Source: Flavicella sediminum
GTDB taxonomy: Bacteria > Bacteroidota > Bacteroidia > Flavobacteriales > Flavobacteriaceae
Direction: 5' to 3'
Assembly (NCBI RefSeq): GCF_006381105.1
Contig: NZ_VDET01000018.1
Coordinates: forward strand, 62,001 to 126,000
DNA: 64,000 bases
The position numbers and the translations under genes are program-made. The notes under the pieces were generated by a model. That model did not search any database, was not told the origin of the DNA, and saw only the letters and a program-made list of their open reading frames with translations. Of the stretch, positions 6,004 through 53,839 are shown one piece after another (the stretch's first letter is position 1; the number at the start of each line of letters is the position of its first letter).

Positions 6004-7119
6004 TTAATCGTTTTTTTCGAAATAACCTTTGTTTGACACGGCAGCATTACTTACCGAGATACTTGCGGTTTTAAACCATACTTCGGCATAATTTCCATCT
6101 TCGTATTGCTTTGGAATATCACCTCCATGGGTTTCAGCTCCAGAGCACCAGTTTTTATTTACTTCAGGAGATTTTCCATTTGTTTGGTTGTAAGCACCTA
6201 GTTTAAAGAAAAGACCTTCACCTGTATAAGCATTTTTACGCTCTACACCATCTTGGCCAATAGGAACAAACAATTTTTGTGTTTGCATTGGAATGTCGGC
6301 TTTGCTTGCGTACTCCGATACAATTAAGTTTTTTGTAAATGTTTTGGTTTCATGACCTTTACTAGAAAAGGTTAAATGCATTAGACCTTCTTTGACTTCA
6401 ATTTTATAACTGAATTCTTCGCCCAACTCAATTCCTTCTGTAGGTTCTTTAGGATAGGTGTTGGCCTCAGTTCCAACAAAAGAAAAATCGTTCCCCCAAA
6501 CAGCAGTTGAATAATCCCATCTAAAAGAATTGTCAGCACCAGCAGTATTAATTTCATAATGCCAAAAGACAGAACCCTTTGTGTGTCCTGGGAATTTCTT
6601 GTAGAATATTTTTAAAGGCTCGTTTTCATGGGCGTCAGCACTATGAATTTGACCTACAACAACGGCATGTGAAGCGGCAACACGAGCATCACCTGTAGCG
6701 GAAACGTTCATGACTTTTAAGGTAGCTGTCAGTTGATCATTGGCCGTTTTGGGATACCATTTTTTCGACTGGGCCAATTCAGTTCTTGTATTGTTAGAGG
6801 TTCCATGGGTGTCACCAGCATTTGGCGCTTTAAAAACAACCCAATTAGTTTTACCGTCATTTTCAGTGTAAAAGAACTTTTTATCTTCAAAATTAGTGGC
6901 AATCCCAGCGTTTGATCCATCTCCTAAAATTAATTTCCAATGATCGAAAAAAGGAATAACATCGCTAGCGTATACCTTTTCCTTCGCTTTCGTTGTATTT
7001 GTCTCCGTTGAAGGCTTGTTTTTTTTATTCTTACAGCTAGTTAAAACAAATAGGAGGCTTAGAATTAGCATGCTATTGGTAATAATTTTTTTAGAATTTA
7101 ATGTACATAGTTTTTTCAT
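6004..7119 (-). CDS. PL7 alginate lyase, lipoprotein
   Basis: A 371-residue protein with a lipoprotein signal (LLFVLTSC at about residue 29) and a PL7 beta-jelly-roll. The three PL7 hallmark blocks are visible in order: RTELAQ (arginine and glutamate of the cleft), VVVGQIHS (catalytic QIH) and, near the C-terminus, FFKLGAYNQ (catalytic tyrosine). It cleaves alginate by beta-elimination, probably at the cell surface. Its start lies 1 bp after the regulator's stop codon, and an SDR follows, so a regulator-lyase-reductase operon is clear. Endo or exo mode and M/G preference cannot be read here, although QIH is often linked to polyguluronate activity. Confidence 0.88.
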   Translation of the reverse strand: MKKLCTLNSKKIITNSMLILSLLFVLTSCKNKKNKPSTETNTTKAKEKVYASDVIPFFDHWKLILGDGSNAGIATNFEDKKFFYTENDGKTNWVVFKAPNAGDTHGTSNNTRTELAQSKKWYPKTANDQLTATLKVMNVSATGDARVAASHAVVVGQIHSADAHENEPLKIFYKKFPGHTKGSVFWHYEINTAGADNSFRWDYSTAVWGNDFSFVGTEANTYPKEPTEGIELGEEFSYKIEVKEGLMHLTFSSKGHETKTFTKNLIVSEYASKADIPMQTQKLFVPIGQDGVERKNAYTGEGLFFKLGAYNQTNGKSPEVNKNWCSGAETHGGDIPKQYEDGNYAEVWFKTASISVSNAAVSNKGYFEKND

Positions 7120-45471: not shown

Positions 45472-46911
45472 TTAGCTTGGCATTTTTCTTCTCGGTTCAT
45501 TGGCCTCATGAAGAACGAATTCTGAATGTAAAAAAGCTGCGGCTTCTGCAGAGTCTTTTACTTTGCGAGCACTTCGCTTTAGCATTTCAGTTTCAAATGC
45601 TGTTAACACCGTTTTTCGTATTCCTTTAGATTGCCAATTAGCTAATGGGCTGCTTTGTTTTGTGATTTCTCTAGCCAAAGACAAAGCGTCTAATAAAGCC
45701 TGATTTGCTCCTTGTCCTTTAAACGGACTCATAGGGTGTGCTGCATCTCCAAGAAGTGTTATTGGACCGCAAGTGTTTAACTGATCAGGGGTTAATAATT
45801 CTCGATCGTAAACAGGATAACCTGATATTTGTGCTTCCGCTGTGGCGGCAATAATTTCTGGAATTGGGCTGTGCCACTGGGTTCTTTTACAGGCTTCTTT
45901 TTTTAGAGCTATTGCTCCTTCTGAACTTAATTCCTTCGCTTCCTTTTCTGACATCGGAAAACTCAATTGCCACATAATAGCTGCTTGATCATAAGGCATC
46001 ATATAAATTCGCTCATTGCCATTGGCGGTTTGAAACACCGTTGCAGAATCTAATAAAGGATGGTCAATACCTTCTAAATTTTGTAAAGGACAAATTCCTA
46101 AAATGACGATACAGTCTAAATAGCGTAAGGGAGTATTGTTATTTGCAAACACCAAATTTCGAACGGAACTTCGGATACCATCGGCACCCACAACAAGATC
46201 GGCTTTGGCCTTTTTTATTTCTCCGTTGACTTCAAAATTTATGTTTATTGTTTGGTCTTCTCTTTTTGTTAAATTCACCAATTGGTGATTCCATTGAACG
46301 CTAGCATGTTCTTCCAGTTGCTTTAGCAAAGCTAAGCGTAAGGATTGTCGTGCAATATGTATGTTTGTTCGTTTTGATGCTTTTTTTTCGTCCGATTGCA
46401 TCCATTTACGCATACCCCATTCGCCAATTATTTTTCCATCGGTATTATGTACCACATGCCTTGTAGAAACGACGCCTTCTTCTAAAGCTAAAATACCGAA
46501 ACCTTCAATGGCTTTACTGGCTTGTTGTAAAGTCAACCCGTAGCCTTGTGACCTAGAATCAAAACTTGGATCTCGTTCATAAAGCGTAAAAGGAATTCCG
46601 CGATGCAAGCAGGCAACCGCCAAAGCGGTACCACCAATACCACCACCAATAATGGCAATATGTGGGTAGTTTTCTGTGTTTGGAACTGGAGGAGAACTAG
46701 CTGCAAGTAGTCCAGACCCTGAACAGTCCACACACGCATATAAATCACCTTGCGGGCGAATGGGAGTTGTGCCTGTACAATTTTCTTGTTCAAATAGTGC
46801 GACTGCTTTTTGGTAGCGAAGTTTTGTTTTTTTACGCAATTTCCTGCGTTTCTTACCTCGTCCACCGCAGGCTTCGCACATCGTCCAACTGTTCTTTTTC
46901 TCTTCTGTCAT
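45472..46911 (-). CDS. FAD-dependent monooxygenase with N-terminal DnaJ-like zinc finger
   Basis: 479 residues. The first 70 hold two CxxCxGxG motifs, CEACGGRG (Cys12, Cys15) and CVDCSGSG (Cys60, Cys63), spaced like one zinc site of the DnaJ Cys-rich domain. Then a class A flavoprotein monooxygenase: IAIIGGGIGGTALAVACLHR (about 80), VVGADGIRSSVRNLV and TLLGDAAHPMSPFKGQGANQ. It hydroxylates an aromatic or polyketide-type substrate, unknown here. The finger may help bind a partner protein. It lies 28 bp after a serine hydrolase gene, so the two are cotranscribed. Confidence 0.8.
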   Translation of the reverse strand: MTEEKKNSWTMCEACGGRGKKRRKLRKKTKLRYQKAVALFEQENCTGTTPIRPQGDLYACVDCSGSGLLAASSPPVPNTENYPHIAIIGGGIGGTALAVACLHRGIPFTLYERDPSFDSRSQGYGLTLQQASKAIEGFGILALEEGVVSTRHVVHNTDGKIIGEWGMRKWMQSDEKKASKRTNIHIARQSLRLALLKQLEEHASVQWNHQLVNLTKREDQTININFEVNGEIKKAKADLVVGADGIRSSVRNLVFANNNTPLRYLDCIVILGICPLQNLEGIDHPLLDSATVFQTANGNERIYMMPYDQAAIMWQLSFPMSEKEAKELSSEGAIALKKEACKRTQWHSPIPEIIAATAEAQISGYPVYDRELLTPDQLNTCGPITLLGDAAHPMSPFKGQGANQALLDALSLAREITKQSSPLANWQSKGIRKTVLTAFETEMLKRSARKVKDSAEAAAFLHSEFVLHEANEPRRKMPS

Positions 46912-47971: not shown

Positions 47972-48365
47972 GCGTTTCTTCCTTTATAAGCCTTTATTTA
48001 GATAACAATTTTGCCAACGGGGTGTTATGGTGAAGTGAATGATTCAATATTATGGGTGTTTTTTTTGAATAGCCCCCTAAGGGGCGACAGTAAAATAATT
48101 TAGGCAATTTTTGAGAAGTAAAGATAACAAATGTGAGGAAAGGGAAATAAGGACTCGTTTTTAATTTTTCTCTGTCGGATTGTTTGTGTAGTTCCAAAGG
48201 AAAACGAGCTTACTCGAAAATACATTTTTTGTAAGGGAAGACTTCTGCTAGATTTTATTTCACCTAAATTCTATGTAAACCAAACAATAAACAAAAATTC
48301 CCTCAAGAAGTACTTGAGGGAATTTAGATAGGTGTTATAAAATGTGTGCTGTATAAACTTTATAC
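47972..48365. other. 394-bp intergenic region
   Basis: Contains a small hairpin GCCCC-CTAA-GGGGC (48072-48085) and the terminator at 48295-48325. A 67-codon minus-strand reading frame here has no recognisable protein features. I see no gene. Confidence 0.5.
48295..48325. terminator. terminator of the SDR operon
   Basis: AAATTCCCTCAAG pairs perfectly with CTTGAGGGAATTT around AAGTA, 41 bp past the SDR stop codon on the minus strand, with a T-run. Its core is nearly the same as the hairpin at 58206. Confidence 0.8.
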
Positions 48366-49085
48366 TTACGGGTTTGTAGACCATAAGGCGGCACCTTTTA
48401 ACATCGCTCTTCTAGGAAGTTTTAACCCAGCCAATACTAATTCTGCAAAATCTTCGGGTTGCAGTACATTTTCTTCAGAGCCTTTGTTTAGCATCCCCAA
48501 TTCCACTGTCATTTCAGTTTCTATGGTACTTGGCGTTAAGGTACATACTCGAATATTATTTTTACGCACCTCTTTCATCAAAGATTCTGACATACCGATA
48601 ACGGCAAATTTGGACGCCGAATAAGCCGAGATATTTGCGTTGCCATTTAAACCGGCAGTTGAAGAAATATTGACAATATCTCCTTCGTTTTTTTCAAGTA
48701 AATAAGGAAGCACTTCTTTGGTTACATAATACATACCCATAACATTGGTTTGAATAATTTGTTGCCATTGCGCCACTTCCATGCTTTCAAAAGAACCGAT
48801 AGCCGCAATACCAGCGTTGTTGACTAATATATCTACGGTTCCTAAAGTTTTTACGATCGTTTTGATACTGCTTTTTACTTCTTCGTAATTGCTTATATCG
48901 AAAACAGAATAGCAAGCTTGCACCCCATAGCTTTGCAGTTCAGCAACAGTTTCTTTCAAGGCTTTTTCATTTCTTCCTGTGATAGCCACAGCTATTCCTT
49001 CTTTGGCGAAGGCTAGGGCAGTAGCTTTTCCAAGTCCCCTTGAGCCACCAGTAATGATGGCTTTTTTATTTTTTAAATTTTCCAT
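48366..49085 (-). CDS. short-chain dehydrogenase/reductase (FabG-like)
   Basis: 239 residues. TGxxxGxG motif in AIITGGSRGLGKATALAF, NNAG in DILVNNAGIAAIG, catalytic Ser in IVNISSTAG, YxxxK in YSASKFAVIGM. It is probably a 3-oxoacyl reductase or sugar/alcohol reductase; substrate unknown. It lies 27 bp after the propeller-Dabb gene and is the last gene of that operon. Confidence 0.85.
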   Translation of the reverse strand: MENLKNKKAIITGGSRGLGKATALAFAKEGIAVAITGRNEKALKETVAELQSYGVQACYSVFDISNYEEVKSSIKTIVKTLGTVDILVNNAGIAAIGSFESMEVAQWQQIIQTNVMGMYYVTKEVLPYLLEKNEGDIVNISSTAGLNGNANISAYSASKFAVIGMSESLMKEVRKNNIRVCTLTPSTIETEMTVELGMLNKGSEENVLQPEDFAELVLAGLKLPRRAMLKGAALWSTNP

Positions 49086-49112
49086 TTTATCTTTTTTTAG
49101 AAGGAACTGTTG

Positions 49113-50624
49113 TTATTTTGTCCAATAATCTAAGACCAATACATCGGCAATAATGGGCCCAATTTTACCCACCATGGCTAAATGTGCTTTGTGAAATAAA
49201 TAAATTTCGCGGGCATGTTCATTTTTAAAAGTTAAAGTAAAACAATGTGTTAAACCTTTTGAATGACCTTCGGTACTGTCGTTAACTCCCCATTCAAGAT
49301 TTGCAATTTCAGGAATTTCATTTTTAAGATTTGCAAAAGCTTTAACAGCTGCATCAACTTGTTCTTTGGTAGCCGTTTTTTTATAGGTCAAGTTCACCAT
49401 ATGTCTTAGCACTTTTCCTTCTCTATTAATTTTTGGTGCAATTTTATAGGTAGCAATTTTTCCTAAATCAAATCGGAAAGAACCTGCAATTAGGAAATTA
49501 GTATTGCCAATTTTATGCGATTTTAAACCATAATAAATAGAAAATCCAGTTTCTAAATAATGCAAAGGCGTTAAAATTCCTTCTTCGTTTAGTTTGCACA
49601 ATTGAATGCTGGCATCGTCTCTAGTACCCACAGCAATAACAGCTTCGTTATTTTGAACAGAAACAATTTCAATTCTTGTTTGCCCTTGCAATTTTGTGGT
49701 TTCATCATCTTTTAAAATAGAATGTGGAATAAGTGCTCCTTTTTTATTCACTTTAAAAATACTTACAGCATCGCCATGGTAAACAAAATCAGGTCTTTTA
49801 ATAAAGCCACCTCTTTTGTAGTATTTATGGTGTCTGTGTCCCACAATTACATACTTGTTTTCACCCAAAGTAACCCCCGTAACCGGATAAGCACCTGTTA
49901 AATATCTGTCTTTCGTATTGTCGCTAATATTATTGACATTTTTGAATTTTCCACTTTCGTAAACTCTAAAACTGCTCACACCATTGTCTTGAAAACCACT
50001 TGTATATAAAAATGTTTTTCCTTTAATTACATGAGTAAACATTCCTATAATCCCATCAGTATGAATGCTTTCATCATCTTTCATAGATTGTACATGGGTC
50101 AATTTTCCATCGTTCTGTATTTTGAAAGAACTCAATCCTGGAGTTTCTTCTAAACCTCCTACAAACAGATACGAAGCTTTTTTCATATGAATTACCTGTA
50201 GCGTAATTGCGGTTCCTAAATGTGTTTCTTCGGTGTCTTCCATTAAAGCAACACGTTCTAAAGCACCATTGTCTAAAATTTTAAAACTTTCAATAACATT
50301 TCCATGTTTGTTGGCAACAAATAAAAAGTCGGTTCCGTTAATATTGTCGGCAACCATACCTCTGGCAGGTCCTTTTTTCATGTGTAATTCGTGGTTGCTA
50401 ATAGGTGTAAGTATGCCTTCCTGATCTAAGCTATAGACATCTACATTTCCTACACCACCGGCATACACAAAGTGCAATCCGTTTTTTTCGTAGCTGGTTA
50501 CCGAAACGGTATTTTTCCCAGTTATGTTTTTAAAATCTTGTCTGTATAGCATTGGCTCTTGTGCGAAACCAATTTGTGCTAAAATGAAGAAGAGAACGAT
50601 CAGTCCTTTTTTGATATGATTCAT
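49113..50624 (-). CDS. secreted beta-propeller protein with C-terminal Dabb domain
   Basis: 503 residues, signal peptide (ends GFAQ). Residues about 25-395 are repeated blade-like strands with conserved turns (YVIVGHRHHKYYKRGG, GVSSFRVYESGKFK, FLIAGSFRF), a lactonase/LVIVD-like propeller. Residues about 400-503 are a stress-responsive A/B-barrel (Dabb) domain: RHMVNLTYKKTATKEQVD and NLEWGVNDSTEG, ending VLVLDYW. Dabb domains usually are small cytoplasmic proteins or fusions in polyketide or stress enzymes; pairing with a secreted propeller is unusual. 24 bp after the GlcG gene. Confidence 0.75.
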   Translation of the reverse strand: MNHIKKGLIVLFFILAQIGFAQEPMLYRQDFKNITGKNTVSVTSYEKNGLHFVYAGGVGNVDVYSLDQEGILTPISNHELHMKKGPARGMVADNINGTDFLFVANKHGNVIESFKILDNGALERVALMEDTEETHLGTAITLQVIHMKKASYLFVGGLEETPGLSSFKIQNDGKLTHVQSMKDDESIHTDGIIGMFTHVIKGKTFLYTSGFQDNGVSSFRVYESGKFKNVNNISDNTKDRYLTGAYPVTGVTLGENKYVIVGHRHHKYYKRGGFIKRPDFVYHGDAVSIFKVNKKGALIPHSILKDDETTKLQGQTRIEIVSVQNNEAVIAVGTRDDASIQLCKLNEEGILTPLHYLETGFSIYYGLKSHKIGNTNFLIAGSFRFDLGKIATYKIAPKINREGKVLRHMVNLTYKKTATKEQVDAAVKAFANLKNEIPEIANLEWGVNDSTEGHSKGLTHCFTLTFKNEHAREIYLFHKAHLAMVGKIGPIIADVLVLDYWTK

Positions 50625-50648
50625 AATTTTTGTTTTTTTCGTTTTTAC

Positions 50649-51134
50649 TTATAAAATAGCTTGTGCTCCGGTTGTAGCAATTTCTCTGTCTTGGTCTATG
50701 GTTCCACCACTAACGCCAATAGCGCCTATAATTTTACCCTTTTTATTTTTAATAGGAAGTCCACCCGGAAAAGTAATCAATCCACCGTTGGAATGTTCAA
50801 TATTGTAAATGATACCTCCAGGTTGGGTTAGCTCTCCTAATTTACCCGTGTCAATATCGAAATATCTAGCGGTTTTGGCTTTTTTAATGGCCACGTCAAT
50901 ACTTCCTAGAAAAGAATCATCCATTCTAATAAAAGCCTTTAAATTTCCACCAGCGTCTACTACGGCAATATTGACAAGGACTTTTGTGGCTTCTGCTTTT
51001 TTCTTTGCAACTAATAATATTTTTAAGGCTTGCTCATGCGAAATATCGTTTGTTTGGGCAAATGCCAAATTAGATAGCATTAGTAGTGTCCCTAAAAAGA
51101 CACAAATTTTGAAATGTTTACGTAAGTTCATCAT
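50649..51134 (-). CDS. secreted GlcG/HbpS-family protein
   Basis: 161 residues with a signal peptide (SNLAFAQ). The GlcG/HbpS fold: VNIAVVDAGGNLKAFIRMDD, AIKKAKTARYF, GGLPIKNKKGKIIGAIGVSGGT, with a characteristic end QDREIATTGAQAI. HbpS binds haem and senses redox stress; GlcG has an unclear role in glycolate use. It is the first gene of an operon with the propeller-Dabb protein and an SDR, downstream of a Crp/Fnr gene, with an FNR-like palindrome ahead of its start. Confidence 0.82.
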   Translation of the reverse strand: MMNLRKHFKICVFLGTLLMLSNLAFAQTNDISHEQALKILLVAKKKAEATKVLVNIAVVDAGGNLKAFIRMDDSFLGSIDVAIKKAKTARYFDIDTGKLGELTQPGGIIYNIEHSNGGLITFPGGLPIKNKKGKIIGAIGVSGGTIDQDREIATTGAQAIL

Positions 51135-51184
51135 TCTCTTCTAAATTTTATATGGCAAAAATTAGAAATCCTTCTGAGAAAAAA

Positions 51185-51200
51185 GTTGAACTTGTTCAAC
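51185..51200. promoter_or_regulatory. FNR-box-like palindrome GTTGAAC-TT-GTTCAAC
   Basis: A perfect 7-bp inverted repeat with a two-base spacer, 51 bp before the start of the GlcG gene and 20 bp after the Crp/Fnr stop codon. Its core TTGA-N6-TCAA has the same spacing as the FNR box TTGAT-N4-ATCAA. It is a good candidate operator for the adjacent Crp/Fnr protein. No T-run follows, so a terminator is less likely. Confidence 0.5.
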
Positions 51201-51219
51201 ACTCTTAAAAAAGCTTGGC

Positions 51220-51795
51220 TTATTTCTTTTGTTTTTTCAGTTTGCTAAGAAACTCATGGGTGATACCCAAATAACTGGCAATTTGCCTATCAGAGACTTT
51301 AGAGGAAATATCAGGATAGGTAGTTAAAAATTTATGGTAACGTTCCTTAGCCGTAAGTGAATTGCTGCTAATAAGACGCCTTTGCCAAGCAATAAGGGCT
51401 TTTTGCGACATCACTCTAAATAATTTTTCTACAGCAGGTTGGGTTTCGTAAAGGGCAAGCTTGTCTTTTCTATCAATTAAAAGTACTTGGCTGTCTTCAA
51501 GGGCTTGAATATTTAATACGGAAGGTGATTGATTCATAAAACTATCAATATCCATTAACCACCAATCTTTGGTCGCAAAATACAAGGTGTTTTCATTTCC
51601 TTTTTTATCGATTGAAAATATGCGAAAACAACCACTTAATACAAAACCTTCAAATTTACAGACTTCGCCTTGTACTAAAACGAAAGCTTTTTTGTGGATG
51701 GACTTTTCATAAAAATAGCTACAAAATTCTTCAAGGGCTGATTTAGAAAATGGAACGTTTTTAAGTATGTTTTTTTTTAGTAAATCCTTGGTCAT
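51220..51795 (-). CDS. Crp/Fnr-family transcriptional regulator
   Basis: 191 residues. The N-terminal cyclic-nucleotide-binding-type beta roll (VLVQGEVCKFEGFVLSGCFRI, STKDWWLMDIDSF-like block) is followed by an HTH (VSDRQIASYLGITHEFLSKL). It has no FNR iron-sulfur Cys cluster and no clear cAMP-contact pattern, like many flavobacterial members with unknown ligands. It lies just ahead of the GlcG operon in the same orientation and may control it through the palindrome at 51185. Confidence 0.82.
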   Translation of the reverse strand: MTKDLLKKNILKNVPFSKSALEEFCSYFYEKSIHKKAFVLVQGEVCKFEGFVLSGCFRIFSIDKKGNENTLYFATKDWWLMDIDSFMNQSPSVLNIQALEDSQVLLIDRKDKLALYETQPAVEKLFRVMSQKALIAWQRRLISSNSLTAKERYHKFLTTYPDISSKVSDRQIASYLGITHEFLSKLKKQKK

Positions 51796-51911: not shown

Positions 51912-52652
51912 TTAGGCTTGCAAAACATAATTTTGAATGACAAACAGTTCTGTAAAGCCCAATTTCAGGTATATATTTTTTCCCATGGCCGAAGCTTGTA
52001 AACTTACGTATTCCATTTGCTGACTAAGTGCCAAATTTATAAGTTGTTTCATCAATTGCTCGGCATAGCCTCTTCGTCTCATTTCTGGTGGTATGCCTAC
52101 AGAATGAATTCCCATGCTATTGTTACTTGCGTAGGCTATGGCTGTGCCAACAGGCGTGTCTTTATCATAAGCTATATAATACGGAATGTCTTGAAGTGTT
52201 TTTTCAATAGTTTCAATACTTATGACATACTTAAAAGCTTGGAAAAATAAATCGGCCCAAATTTTAATTTGTGTGCTATTGGTGACACGTTGAATTTTAA
52301 AATCTGTTGCTATAGCAAAAGCTTCGTCTATTTTTAAGGACATACCGACTTGTTCAAACCGCAGCTTAAAACCATTTTCTTTTAAAAGTGTTTCTTGTTT
52401 TTTATTGGGAAGTTGCCAAATTGGGAGGGTGATATAAGAACTTGCAGTGGTTAGTTTTTGTTGAATGATAGGCAGATTTTCTTCGGTAATGGGTTTTTGA
52501 AACCAAATTCTATTAGGCCAAGCAGAACCTTTAATTTCACAGAAATCAAAATTTGAAGTTTTTTCATAAGCGTTAAAAGCCCTACCCGCTGTTTTCCATA
52601 GATCCGTCAGATTTTGCAGGTTGTCGTTTATAAGTTCAGTTGTTGTTTTCAT
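51912..52652 (-). CDS. GNAT-family acetyltransferase with N-terminal extra domain
   Basis: Start at MKTTTEL (52652), because this ATG overlaps the stop codon of the transporter gene in the four-base ATGA form, a sign of translational coupling. About 246 residues: an N-terminal half without recognisable motifs (WFQKPITEENLPIIQ, typical of two-domain GNATs) and a C-terminal GNAT with MGIHSVGIPPEMRRRGYAEQLMKQLI (acetyl-CoA loop RRRGYA) and YVSLQASAMGKNIYLKLGF. Substrate unknown. Confidence 0.82.
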   Translation of the reverse strand: MKTTTELINDNLQNLTDLWKTAGRAFNAYEKTSNFDFCEIKGSAWPNRIWFQKPITEENLPIIQQKLTTASSYITLPIWQLPNKKQETLLKENGFKLRFEQVGMSLKIDEAFAIATDFKIQRVTNSTQIKIWADLFFQAFKYVISIETIEKTLQDIPYYIAYDKDTPVGTAIAYASNNSMGIHSVGIPPEMRRRGYAEQLMKQLINLALSQQMEYVSLQASAMGKNIYLKLGFTELFVIQNYVLQA

Positions 52653-53104
52653 TTTATATTGATTAAAAGAATTCCGAAAATCATTGCAATAAGGCCTAGT
52701 CCTCTTTTTAAACTGATGGGTTCCAAAGGTAAATTTAGCCAACCAAAATGTCCTGCAAAAACAGAAAAGGCCAATTGCCCAAACAAACCGAAAGAGATCA
52801 TGGTAGAAATACCCAATTTAGGAATGGTGTAATAATACAAACTAATTCCTAAAACACTAAACAAGCCCCCTGTAAACCATAAATAAATAGGAATTTGTTT
52901 GAGCGTGATTGCCATAGGGAAATTTTTGCCGCTAAGAAAAACTAAAGCGATTGCAAAAATGCTACTGCTACAAAAAGCAACAACCGATGCCAACAAGGGA
53001 TTTTTTAGCAATACGCCTAAATGTGCATTGAGTCCGCCTTGCATGGCCAAAAAAACGCCACCTACTATGGCCAGTATAGCTAAGGATACTTGGTTCATAA
53101 GCAT
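52649..53104 (-). CDS. YdcZ-family (DMT superfamily) transporter
   Basis: 151 residues with five hydrophobic segments; the N-terminus MLMNQVSLAILAIVGG (a start at 53098, MNQVSL, is also possible) and FLAMQGGLNAHLGVLLKNPLLAS are typical of YdcZ. Proteins of this kind are inner-membrane transporters or regulators with unknown substrate. It is coupled with the GNAT gene (overlap of 4 bases), so the two may act on the same compound. Confidence 0.82.
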   Translation of the reverse strand: MLMNQVSLAILAIVGGVFLAMQGGLNAHLGVLLKNPLLASVVAFCSSSIFAIALVFLSGKNFPMAITLKQIPIYLWFTGGLFSVLGISLYYYTIPKLGISTMISFGLFGQLAFSVFAGHFGWLNLPLEPISLKRGLGLIAMIFGILLINIK

Positions 53105-53239: not shown

Positions 53240-53839
53240 TCAAGGACTTTTTTTTAAATCTTTACGGATGCGACTTAGCTGTGTGGGGGTAATTCCTAAA
53301 TGAGAAGCAATGTGCAATTGCTGTATGCGTTGGTCAATATTGGGGTGTTTTAAAAGTAAGTCTCGATATCTTTCTGTGGCATTTTCCATAACCAGTGACA
53401 CTTCTCGTTGTTCTTTTTCTAGGATCCAATTTTTTTCCAAATAGGCAATATAGAAATTTTTTAAGTCGAGGTGGGTATCGATAAGCTGTCTGTATTTTTT
53501 ATAATCCAGATGAATAAGTGTGGTGTTTTCCAAAGCTTCTAAGCTAAAATTGGAAGGCTTTTGCAAAAGATAGGAAACGGTAGAACCCGCAAAATCATTT
53601 TCAAGAAAAATATTTTTATTGTAGCTGTTGCCAGCCGCATCGGTTATATAGGCCCGAAGTGCACCTTTGCAAACAAAATGGATGTTTTTGGCAATTTGAC
53701 CATTTCTAAGCAAAAGTGCATTTTTCTCTAAATCTTGAAATTGAATCAGCGCGGCTATTTTTAACCAAGATGCCTCTGAAATTGCATGGTAACTTTCAAT
53801 TTTTAGTCTTAATTCGGAAATATATTTTTCTTTAGTCAA
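53240..53839 (-). CDS. Crp/Fnr-family regulator
   Basis: 199 residues. N-terminal ligand domain (NALLLRNGQIAKNIHFVCKG, FAGSTVSYLL) and C-terminal helix-turn-helix with LHIASHLGITPTQLSRIRK. It is 135 bp upstream of the transporter-acetyltransferase pair in the same orientation and is the obvious candidate to control them. No FNR-type Cys cluster is seen. Confidence 0.82.
   Translation of the reverse strand: MTKEKYISELRLKIESYHAISEASWLKIAALIQFQDLEKNALLLRNGQIAKNIHFVCKGALRAYITDAAGNSYNKNIFLENDFAGSTVSYLLQKPSNFSLEALENTTLIHLDYKKYRQLIDTHLDLKNFYIAYLEKNWILEKEQREVSLVMENATERYRDLLLKHPNIDQRIQQLHIASHLGITPTQLSRIRKDLKKSP

What the first reader, a model, noticed from the sequence alone, without database searches (positions are those of the whole stretch)
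48366..51795. Crp/Fnr-GlcG-propeller/Dabb-SDR operon with an FNR-like box
A 16-bp perfect palindrome with FNR spacing sits just upstream of the GlcG gene, next to a Crp/Fnr gene in the same orientation. The operon joins a haem/redox-type sensor fold, a secreted propeller fused to a Dabb domain, and an SDR, and ends in a strong terminator. The combination is not one I recognise and might be a stress or aromatic-compound response.
Basis: partly seen in the sequence, partly recalled or inferred. Interest (0 to 1): 0.6.

Follow-up and report, generated by a model that had tools for sequence, protein, structure and literature searches.

The report
Crp-controlled operon in seaweed-degrading bacteria
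A small set of bacterial genes sits behind what looks like a precisely placed DNA switch for the regulator encoded next door, and it travels with the enzymes that strip methyl groups from red-seaweed sugar and release formaldehyde, so it may be part of how seaweed-eating bacteria cope with that poison.

Summary
The box 51185-51200 (7-bp arms, 2-nt centre) recurs as TTGAAC-N2-GTTCAA upstream of the operon in 71 of 80 relatives found by protein, with a Bacteroidota -7 element (TTTG 68, TTTA 3) ending exactly 29 nt downstream. That predicts -41.5, the class II activator position. The box stays where crp is not adjacent; all 15 such genomes hold a crp orthologue, against 0 of 6 genomes whose operon gene lacks the box. 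So it is a promoter site for the Crp-type neighbour, not crp's terminator.

The regulator lacks FNR's cysteines. 'GlcG' is a probably exported relative of EfgA, a formaldehyde sensor; it keeps EfgA's three ligand residues and has no invariant histidine. The Dabb protein is a seven-bladed, lactonase-like propeller. In 199 family genomes, the P450 cassette that demethylates 6-O-methyl-galactose and releases formaldehyde occurs in 11 of 11 operon genomes and 4 of 188 others.

Best reading: an activator-controlled envelope module of red-algal galactan degraders, possibly for formaldehyde. Formaldehyde itself is unproven.

The parts
51220..51795 (-). Crp/Fnr-family regulator (191 aa); putative activator of the operon; HEFL invariant in the recognition-helix region, Cys56 invariant, no FNR-type cysteine cluster
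   Evidence: PF00027; 59 aligned regulators; orthologue co-occurrence
51185..51200 (-). Operator: GTTGAAC-N2-GTTCAAC, centre predicted at -41.5
   Evidence: (71 of 80 loci exact core)
51156..51163 (-). Near-consensus Bacteroidota sigmaA -7 element (AATTTTTG against TAnnTTTG); predicted start of transcription about 51151 (inferred)
   Evidence: TTTG ends 29 nt from the operator in 68 of 71, TTTA in the other 3; -12 to -5 placement from PMC9723704 passages
50649..51134 (-). HbpS/GlcG-family protein (161 aa) with a signal-peptide-like N-terminus, EfgA-related; K85, S142, D149 match EfgA K57, S114, D121
49113..50624 (-). Seven-bladed lactonase-type propeller with signal-peptide-like N-terminus, fused to a C-terminal Dabb barrel (503 aa)
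49122..49409 (-). Dabb domain (residues 406-501) of the fused protein
   Evidence: PF07876, 3.4e-21; solved relatives incl. olivetolic acid cyclase and SP1
48366..49085 (-). Short-chain dehydrogenase/reductase (239 aa), NCBIfam NF005806 above its cut-off
   Evidence: found in 45 of 80 loci
48295..48325 (-). Intrinsic-terminator-like hairpin after the SDR (13 pairs, T-rich tail)

Best explanation
A Crp/Fnr-family protein (51220-51795), whose signal is unknown, binds GTTGAAC-N2-GTTCAAC centred at -41.5 and activates, class II fashion, a sigmaA promoter with a weak -7 box. This switches on glcG, propeller-Dabb and (where present) an OprB porin and the SDR. The first two products are probably exported: an EfgA-related protein that may bind a small aldehyde, and a seven-bladed lactonase-like propeller carrying a Dabb barrel. 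The SDR stays in the cytosol. The module belongs to red-algal galactan degradation, and its most likely job is to sense or dispose of a reactive product of that pathway, with formaldehyde from P450 demethylation of 6-O-methyl-galactose as the first candidate. Shown by sequence: the operator, its fixed place before the -7 element, the regulator-site co-occurrence, the EfgA kinship with its three residues, and the genome-level link to the P450 cassette. Inferred: binding by this regulator, activation rather than repression, export, ligand and chemistry. My split: regulation by the neighbour at the box 0.9; galactan-degradation link 0.75; formaldehyde itself about 0.45.
For: Operator: exact core in 71 of 80 loci; TTTG or TTTA at one fixed distance in 71 of 71, while flanks are 0.37-0.38 identical pairwise (the core's own identity is by selection). 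With -12 to -5 for the -7 box (PMC9723704) the centre falls at -41.5. Regulator: orthologue elsewhere in 15 of 15 genomes whose operon has the box but no crp beside it, in 0 of 6 without the box at the operon. In 199 family genomes, homologues of at least 65% identity are in exactly the 11 operon genomes. Same promoter layout at other genes: an acyltransferase in 7 genomes (6 at the same spacing, 1 one base shorter) and one SusC gene. The 52% homologues in G072 and G075 are followed by the core and a different target. GlcG: EfgA 140 bits against 73.5 for the next; tree groups it with EfgA; K/S/D 71 of 71; the family's EfgA-like paralogues adjoin formaldehyde dehydrogenase fdhA in 3 of 3 genomes whose fdhA passes the cut-off (a fourth, G141, just below the cut-off, is not adjacent). 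Pathway: P450 best match 6g5o at 668 bits, next 151; ADH best matches 8h2a and 8h2b; five-gene cassette in 11 of 11 operon genomes and 4 of 188 others, Fisher 3.7e-15 without phylogenetic correction; P450 in 41 of 50 further genomes with propeller-Dabb; cassette P450 10.6 kb past the operon's SDR in Zobellia russellii. GlcG and propeller-Dabb are one ORF in 3 Saprospiraceae MAG loci.
Against: No binding, expression or enzyme data. EfgA acts in the cytoplasm (PMC8153426, passages), whereas this protein looks exported and the P450 cytosolic. The K/S/D residues are, in that paper's legend, largely conserved across DUF336 homologues, so they are weak evidence for formaldehyde. 5 of 44 box-bearing genomes tested lack the P450 (G214, G222, G250, G257, G258) and 4 P450 genomes of the family sample lack the operon. 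No operator-like site with 2 or fewer mismatches lies in the 15 cassette stretches examined. The operon lacks glcG in 9 of 80 loci and a close SDR in 35. The 14-nt core also occurs 7 times, away from the operon, in 4 of the 6 genomes counted as lacking the box (reversed control 4), so only its place at the operon is informative. In two loci (L099, L111) the box lies about 730 nt before glcG. The -7 element lacks the first T of the consensus in the window. The P450 link could be lifestyle, not mechanism; relatives are not independent.
Confidence: 0.6

Rival explanations
1. The palindrome with its T-run is only the intrinsic terminator of the crp gene; no operator is involved.
For: On the minus strand GTTGAAC-AA-GTTCAAC is followed by TTTTTT, and it lies 10-25 nt after the crp stop in 47 of 55 loci measured. 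In two Maribacter genomes it follows crp although the operon is elsewhere.
Against: It stays upstream of glcG or propeller-Dabb in loci without adjacent crp, recurs before acyltransferase and SusC genes, and keeps an exact distance to the -7 element. Its outermost pair changes without compensation in several loci. At the two Maribacter sites TTTA follows at the same distance, then what looks by eye like a decayed glcG start, as expected of a relic promoter. The scan did not list it, which is weak: that scan demands three G-C pairs.
Confidence: 0.05
2. The module handles a sugar-derived product of red-algal galactan (an anhydrogalactose aldehyde or a galactonolactone), with the propeller as a lactonase and the SDR as a sugar reductase or dehydrogenase; the P450 link is simply shared diet.
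For: PF10282 in 43 of 46 relatives; a gene clustering with an OprB carbohydrate porin inside the operon in 9 loci (one scanned by Pfam); sulfatase, fucosidase-like and sugar-acid genes beside it in Zobellia russellii and sulfatases in a Maribacter MAG (names read by eye from sequence starts); operon genomes are also enriched for alginate lyase (9 of 11 against 39 of 188), a general seaweed-diet marker.
Against: Gives no reason for an EfgA-related protein, fused to the propeller in some loci; lactonase activity cannot be told from the propeller fold.
Confidence: 0.35
3. Haem or redox sensing: the HbpS-like protein binds haem and the Crp/Fnr protein is an oxygen or redox switch.
For: Family name HbpS-like; HbpS and PduOC bind haem (PMC4923194, passages).
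Against: PduOC ligand position holds Leu 48, Phe 17, others 6, His 0 of 71; no invariant His in GlcG; one invariant Cys in the regulator. The haem-binding HbpS entries score 30-32 bits against 140 for EfgA. HbpS itself has Thr there and binds weakly, so haem is not excluded.
Confidence: 0.08

Closest known systems
EfgA, formaldehyde sensor of Methylorubrum extorquens (PDB 6bws/6c0z; PMC8153426)
   Same: Same DUF336 family; window protein 55.9% identical over 127 aligned residues; ligand residues K57, S114, D121 kept
   Different: Operonic protein has a signal-peptide-like N-terminus, EfgA is cytoplasmic; operonic proteins form their own clade (99/99); fixed operon, whereas that paper reports no conserved context for efgA in methylotrophs (passages)
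Class II Crp/Fnr promoters (recalled)
   Same: Two-fold site with TTGA-N6-TCAA spacing at a predicted -41.5, weak core promoter, regulator encoded next door
   Different: Own consensus TTGAAC-N2-GTTCAA on a Bacteroidota-type promoter; one to three exact sites per genome rather than a global regulon; no FNR cysteine cluster
6-O-methyl-D-galactose demethylation cassette (P450, ferredoxin, reductase, ADH) of porphyran loci (PMC10033563)
   Same: Co-occurs with the operon across genomes; releases formaldehyde
   Different: Separate locus, no shared operator found; [quoted passage not shown]
Lactonase (PF10282) propellers and Dabb (PF07876) proteins such as SP1 and olivetolic acid cyclase
   Same: Recognisable propeller and Dabb domains
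   Different: No Pfam or NCBIfam model covering the fusion was hit

Membership tests
Crp/Fnr superfamily regulator | Cyclic-nucleotide-binding-type sensor domain (PF00027) | tested here: met
   40 bits against a cut-off of 27.5
FNR (4Fe-4S oxygen sensor) | Four conserved cluster cysteines (recalled) | tested here: not met
   59 regulators: Cys56 59, Cys46 48, Cys25 47, one further column 33
cAMP-CRP | NCBIfam CRP equivalog PRK11753; cAMP phosphate-binding motif (recalled) | tested here: not met
   17.3 bits against a cut-off of 266; motif not seen by eye; no binding test
Class II activator site | Site centred near -41.5 of the promoter | tested here: met
   the transcription start is predicted, not mapped
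Class II activator site | Regulator binds the site and activates | not testable with these tools
   Only co-occurrence
HbpS/GlcG family (PF03928) | Profile match over the cut-off | tested here: met
   123.9 bits against 25
EfgA clade | Groups with EfgA apart from OrfY, PduOC, NahX, HbpS | tested here: met
   95/91 support, but long branches are flagged and only five reference sequences were used; operonic members form a separate subclade
EfgA clade | Formaldehyde-contact residues K57, S114, D121 | tested here: met
   71 of 71; not diagnostic
EfgA clade | Formaldehyde binding and growth arrest | not testable with these tools
   Needs biochemistry
PduOC-type haem protein | Axial histidine (His18) | tested here: not met
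   0 of 71 His at the position extrapolated two residues beyond the end of the alignment
Lactonase propeller PF10282 | Profile match | tested here: inconclusive
   43 of 46 members match at E 0.01, window member does not; fold search gives many seven-bladed propellers
Dabb PF07876 | Profile match | tested here: met
   46 of 46
Intrinsic terminator (for the box) | Tied to the 3' end of a gene | tested here: not met

The most novel reading that the evidence does not exclude
This is the dedicated formaldehyde-response module of porphyran-degrading Bacteroidota: a Crp-type one-component regulator, a private operator at -41.5, an exported EfgA-type formaldehyde receptor and a propeller-Dabb effector, deployed when the P450 demethylates 6-O-methyl-galactose. 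It would be an envelope formaldehyde defence in non-methylotrophs and would fill the gap left when the cassette's own dehydrogenase proved not to detoxify formaldehyde.
Probability: 0.35. Interest if true: 0.78.

Novelty: new variant of a known kind. Interest (0 to 1): 0.6.

Why it matters
Crp/Fnr-type regulators are numerous in Bacteroidota but few have known sites (recalled); here regulator, site, promoter geometry and targets are defined well enough to test in one gel shift. The operon also gives a concrete candidate for an open question: how seaweed degraders survive the formaldehyde they make from methylated algal galactose, since the dehydrogenase beside the P450 was reported not to detoxify it (PMC10033563, passages). 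I found no paper on this operon in the library searched (listings only, plus passages of the papers named); papers outside that library were not searched.

Tried and rejected
Terminator-only reading of the box: rejected (see rivals). FNR and haem readings: not supported by conserved residues. A broad regulon: not seen. The exact 16-mer occurs 13 times in 11 genomes (reversed control 0) and 38 times in 39 genomes (control 3). Of these 51, 39 are at the operon (29 of the 38 checked by coordinates, 10 of the 13), 7 before an acyltransferase, 2 at crp-side relic promoters, 1 before a SusC gene, 1 near dnaN without the -7 element, 1 inside a coding sequence. All these genomes were chosen as operon carriers; one search took 40 of the 80 named loci, one of which was not held.

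Operator in the P450 cassette: none with 2 or fewer mismatches in 15 stretches. FdhA in operon genomes: none over the cut-off (3 of 199 overall). Literature strings for the site gave unrelated papers. Two Zobellia transcriptome papers held no passage on the terms I gave: Crp, P450 and others in PMC5613140; Crp, haem, formaldehyde, lactonase in PMC9296495; main text only. Weak TIGR02819 matches in 122 of 199 genomes are mostly generic dehydrogenases. G173 and G112, which show P450 matches, have no match at E 1e-60 (G112 is 64% complete and its match lies at a contig end). The P450 absence in the other genomes rests on the PF00067 search at E 1e-10. ORF-based gene counts miss one crp and one glcG that tblastn finds. 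Fold searches return generic seven-bladed propellers; the Dabb part was not searched alone. In G127 the 51% regulator homologue is followed only by a 3-mismatch version of the box.

Caveats on counts: one search kept the best 80 of 104 relatives; at least seven named loci are the same genomes as handles of the 199 sample (contig lengths); one search tested 50 of the 80 loci; the 44 box-bearing genomes there include three with one core mismatch; of the 15 loci without adjacent crp, L053 is probably an assembly break (contig ends), L094's orthologue is about 8 kb away on the same contig, and L095's genome has it beside a second operon copy. Fisher tests ignore phylogeny.
Full report
What is there. 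On the minus strand the window encodes crp/fnr (51220-51795), glcG (50649-51134), a propeller-Dabb protein (49113-50624) and an SDR (48366-49085), ending in a 13-pair hairpin with a T-rich tail at 48325-48295. The box GTTGAACTTGTTCAAC lies at 51185-51200, 19 nt past the crp stop and 50 nt before the glcG start; its arms are 7 nt with a non-palindromic two-base centre. The exact 16-mer pattern occurs once in the 4.58-Mb genome. The genome is probably a Flavicella: the same-genus genome G002 has a contig of the same length as the Flavicella marina record of locus L082 (inference).

The unit is conserved. In 199 genomes of the family, 42 match the propeller-Dabb protein: 11 over the full length, 31 over the Dabb part only. 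All 11 have crp, glcG and propeller-Dabb in the same order, and 9 show the SDR within the 1.5-kb flank held. In a named collection 104 relatives were found and the best 80 kept; by their names they are mostly marine Bacteroidota of genera known to me from seaweed (recalled). By tblastn 71 of 80 have glcG and 59 have the crp orthologue (58-77% identity) within the flank. The SDR is found in 45 of 80, and nine loci carry a gene of one cluster, OprB in the copy scanned, between propeller-Dabb and SDR. In three Saprospiraceae MAG loci (L072, L094, L104) GlcG and propeller-Dabb form one reading frame. Three loci (L047, L055, L113) lack glcG and have the box 48-116 nt before propeller-Dabb.

The box is a promoter element. 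TTGAAC-N2-GTTCAA is present in 71 of 80 loci, and three more have one core mismatch. The six without it (L060, L096, L097, L101, L105, L109) also lack glcG and crp in the flank. Where glcG is present the box ends 39-106 nt before it, except about 730 nt in L099 and L111. In all 71 the triplet TTT of a -7 element stands at the same place, followed by G in 68 and A in 3, the fourth base being 29 nt after the box. Flavobacterial sigmaA promoters have TAnnTTTG at -12 to -5 (PMC9723704, passages), which puts the centre of the box at -41.5. In the window the element is AATTTTTG at 51163-51156, one letter off consensus, and the start is predicted at about 51151. Flanking sequence is unrelated between loci (mean pairwise identity 0.38 upstream, 0.37 downstream); the box itself was selected by exact match in that comparison.

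The box belongs to the neighbouring regulator. Fifteen loci have the box but no crp beside it; all 15 genomes hold a crp orthologue (52-73% identity) elsewhere. One of these loci (L053) is probably an assembly break, in L094 the orthologue is about 8 kb away, and L095's genome has it beside a second operon copy. The six genomes without the box at the operon have no orthologue; G221's best hit is a 40% paralogue. Four of those six do hold the 14-nt core elsewhere, 7 places against 4 for the reversed control. In the 199 family genomes, homologues of at least 65% identity are found in exactly the 11 operon genomes; three more genomes (G072, G075, G127) have 51-52% homologues and no full-length propeller-Dabb. 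One of the 11, G061, has an in-frame stop in its regulator. In G072 and G075 the same core follows the regulator gene and precedes a hydrolase-like gene and a small second gene (read by eye), with the -7 TTTG one base further away. In two Maribacter genomes the regulator has been separated from the operon; both places keep box and -7 element. A second target, an acyltransferase (PF01757 in the copy scanned; six copies 80-97% identical to it), has the box before it in seven genomes, six with TTTA at the same spacing and one (G213) a base shorter by eye. A SusC gene has box and TTTA at the same spacing in one genome.

What the proteins are. The regulator has a PF00027 domain, an invariant HEFL in its recognition-helix region and one invariant cysteine; it is not an FNR-type iron-sulphur sensor. 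GlcG's best solved relative is the formaldehyde sensor EfgA (E 6.9e-40, 140 bits; next 73.5 bits). EfgA's ligand residues K57, S114 and D121 (PMC8153426, passages) correspond to K85, S142 and D149, kept in 71 of 71 sequences; I fitted the numbering to the tagged chain, and all three letters agree. That paper calls these residues largely conserved in DUF336 homologues, so they do not prove the ligand. The PduO haem-ligand position is Leu or Phe in 65 of 71 and His in none. A crude test finds a hydrophobic signal-like N-terminus in 70 of 71. A tree with five reference proteins groups the operonic proteins, flavobacterial paralogues (61-71% identical to EfgA) and EfgA (95/91), with long-branch warnings. 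Three of 199 genomes have a formaldehyde dehydrogenase over the TIGR02819 cut-off, and in all three it adjoins such a paralogue; in G141, just below the cut-off, it does not. The Dabb protein was predicted with mean pLDDT 89.6 as a propeller followed by a Dabb domain; 43 of 46 relatives match PF10282. Fold matches are generic propellers, including the lactonase-type 1ri6 and 6nau.

The pathway link. Because EfgA suggested formaldehyde, I looked for formaldehyde sources. A PF00067 search of the 199 genomes gave weak, partial hits in all 11 operon genomes, about 2 kb from a zinc dehydrogenase. In the window's genome this is a five-gene cassette: ferredoxin reductase, ferredoxin, P450, esterase, dehydrogenase (first two and esterase named by eye). 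The P450 matches 6g5o at 668 bits, next 151; the dehydrogenase matches 8h2a and 8h2b, named in PMC10033563 as FoADH and ZoADH of the 6-O-methyl-galactose pathway of porphyran degraders. That 6g5o is the Zobellia enzyme is recalled, not read. The P450 reaction releases formaldehyde (PMC10033563, passages). Homologues of all five genes lie together in 11 of 11 operon genomes and in four others (G011, G119, G134, G177; the P450 of G134 has an in-frame stop), out of 188. Fisher p 3.7e-15 without phylogenetic correction. Of 50 further genomes with propeller-Dabb, 41 have the P450: 39 of 44 with the box and 2 of 6 without.

How it probably works. I conclude that a Crp-type activator turns on an envelope module in bacteria that eat red-algal galactans. 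Which molecule is sensed and what the propeller-Dabb protein does are open. Formaldehyde is the leading candidate because of EfgA kinship and the P450 link; a sugar aldehyde or lactone from the same polysaccharide is the main rival, and my data cannot separate the two. The likely export of GlcG speaks against a copy of EfgA's cytoplasmic action. No paper on this operon was found in the searches named.

Noticed in passing
window 45472-46911 (-): FAD-dependent monooxygenase (PF01494) whose N-terminal part weakly resembles a DnaJ-type CxxCxGxG zinc finger (PF00684 at E 0.034, below its cut-off); an odd fusion if real.
   Followed up: no
window 6055-6945 (-): Alginate lyase (PF08787) in the same window, from G000:C10:68055-68945; the genome has four such matches.
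   Followed up: no
window 53240-53839 (-): A second Crp/Fnr-family gene, upstream of a YdcZ-type exporter gene (52649-53104).
   Followed up: no
L006 / G061:C1:3188907-3189398: The regulator orthologue of G061 carries an in-frame TAA although operon and box are present; decay or sequencing error.
   Followed up: no
L116, near 149: An exact copy of the box near dnaN in G169 without the -7 element at the usual distance; possible relic.
   Followed up: partly
L252: In G175 a Crp/Fnr-like gene (by eye), an EfgA-like gene and an old-yellow-enzyme-type gene lie in a row, a parallel regulator-EfgA pairing.
   Followed up: no
L245, L250, L263: EfgA-like gene beside glutathione-independent formaldehyde dehydrogenase fdhA in three flavobacterial genomes (G013, G039, G049).
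   Followed up: yes
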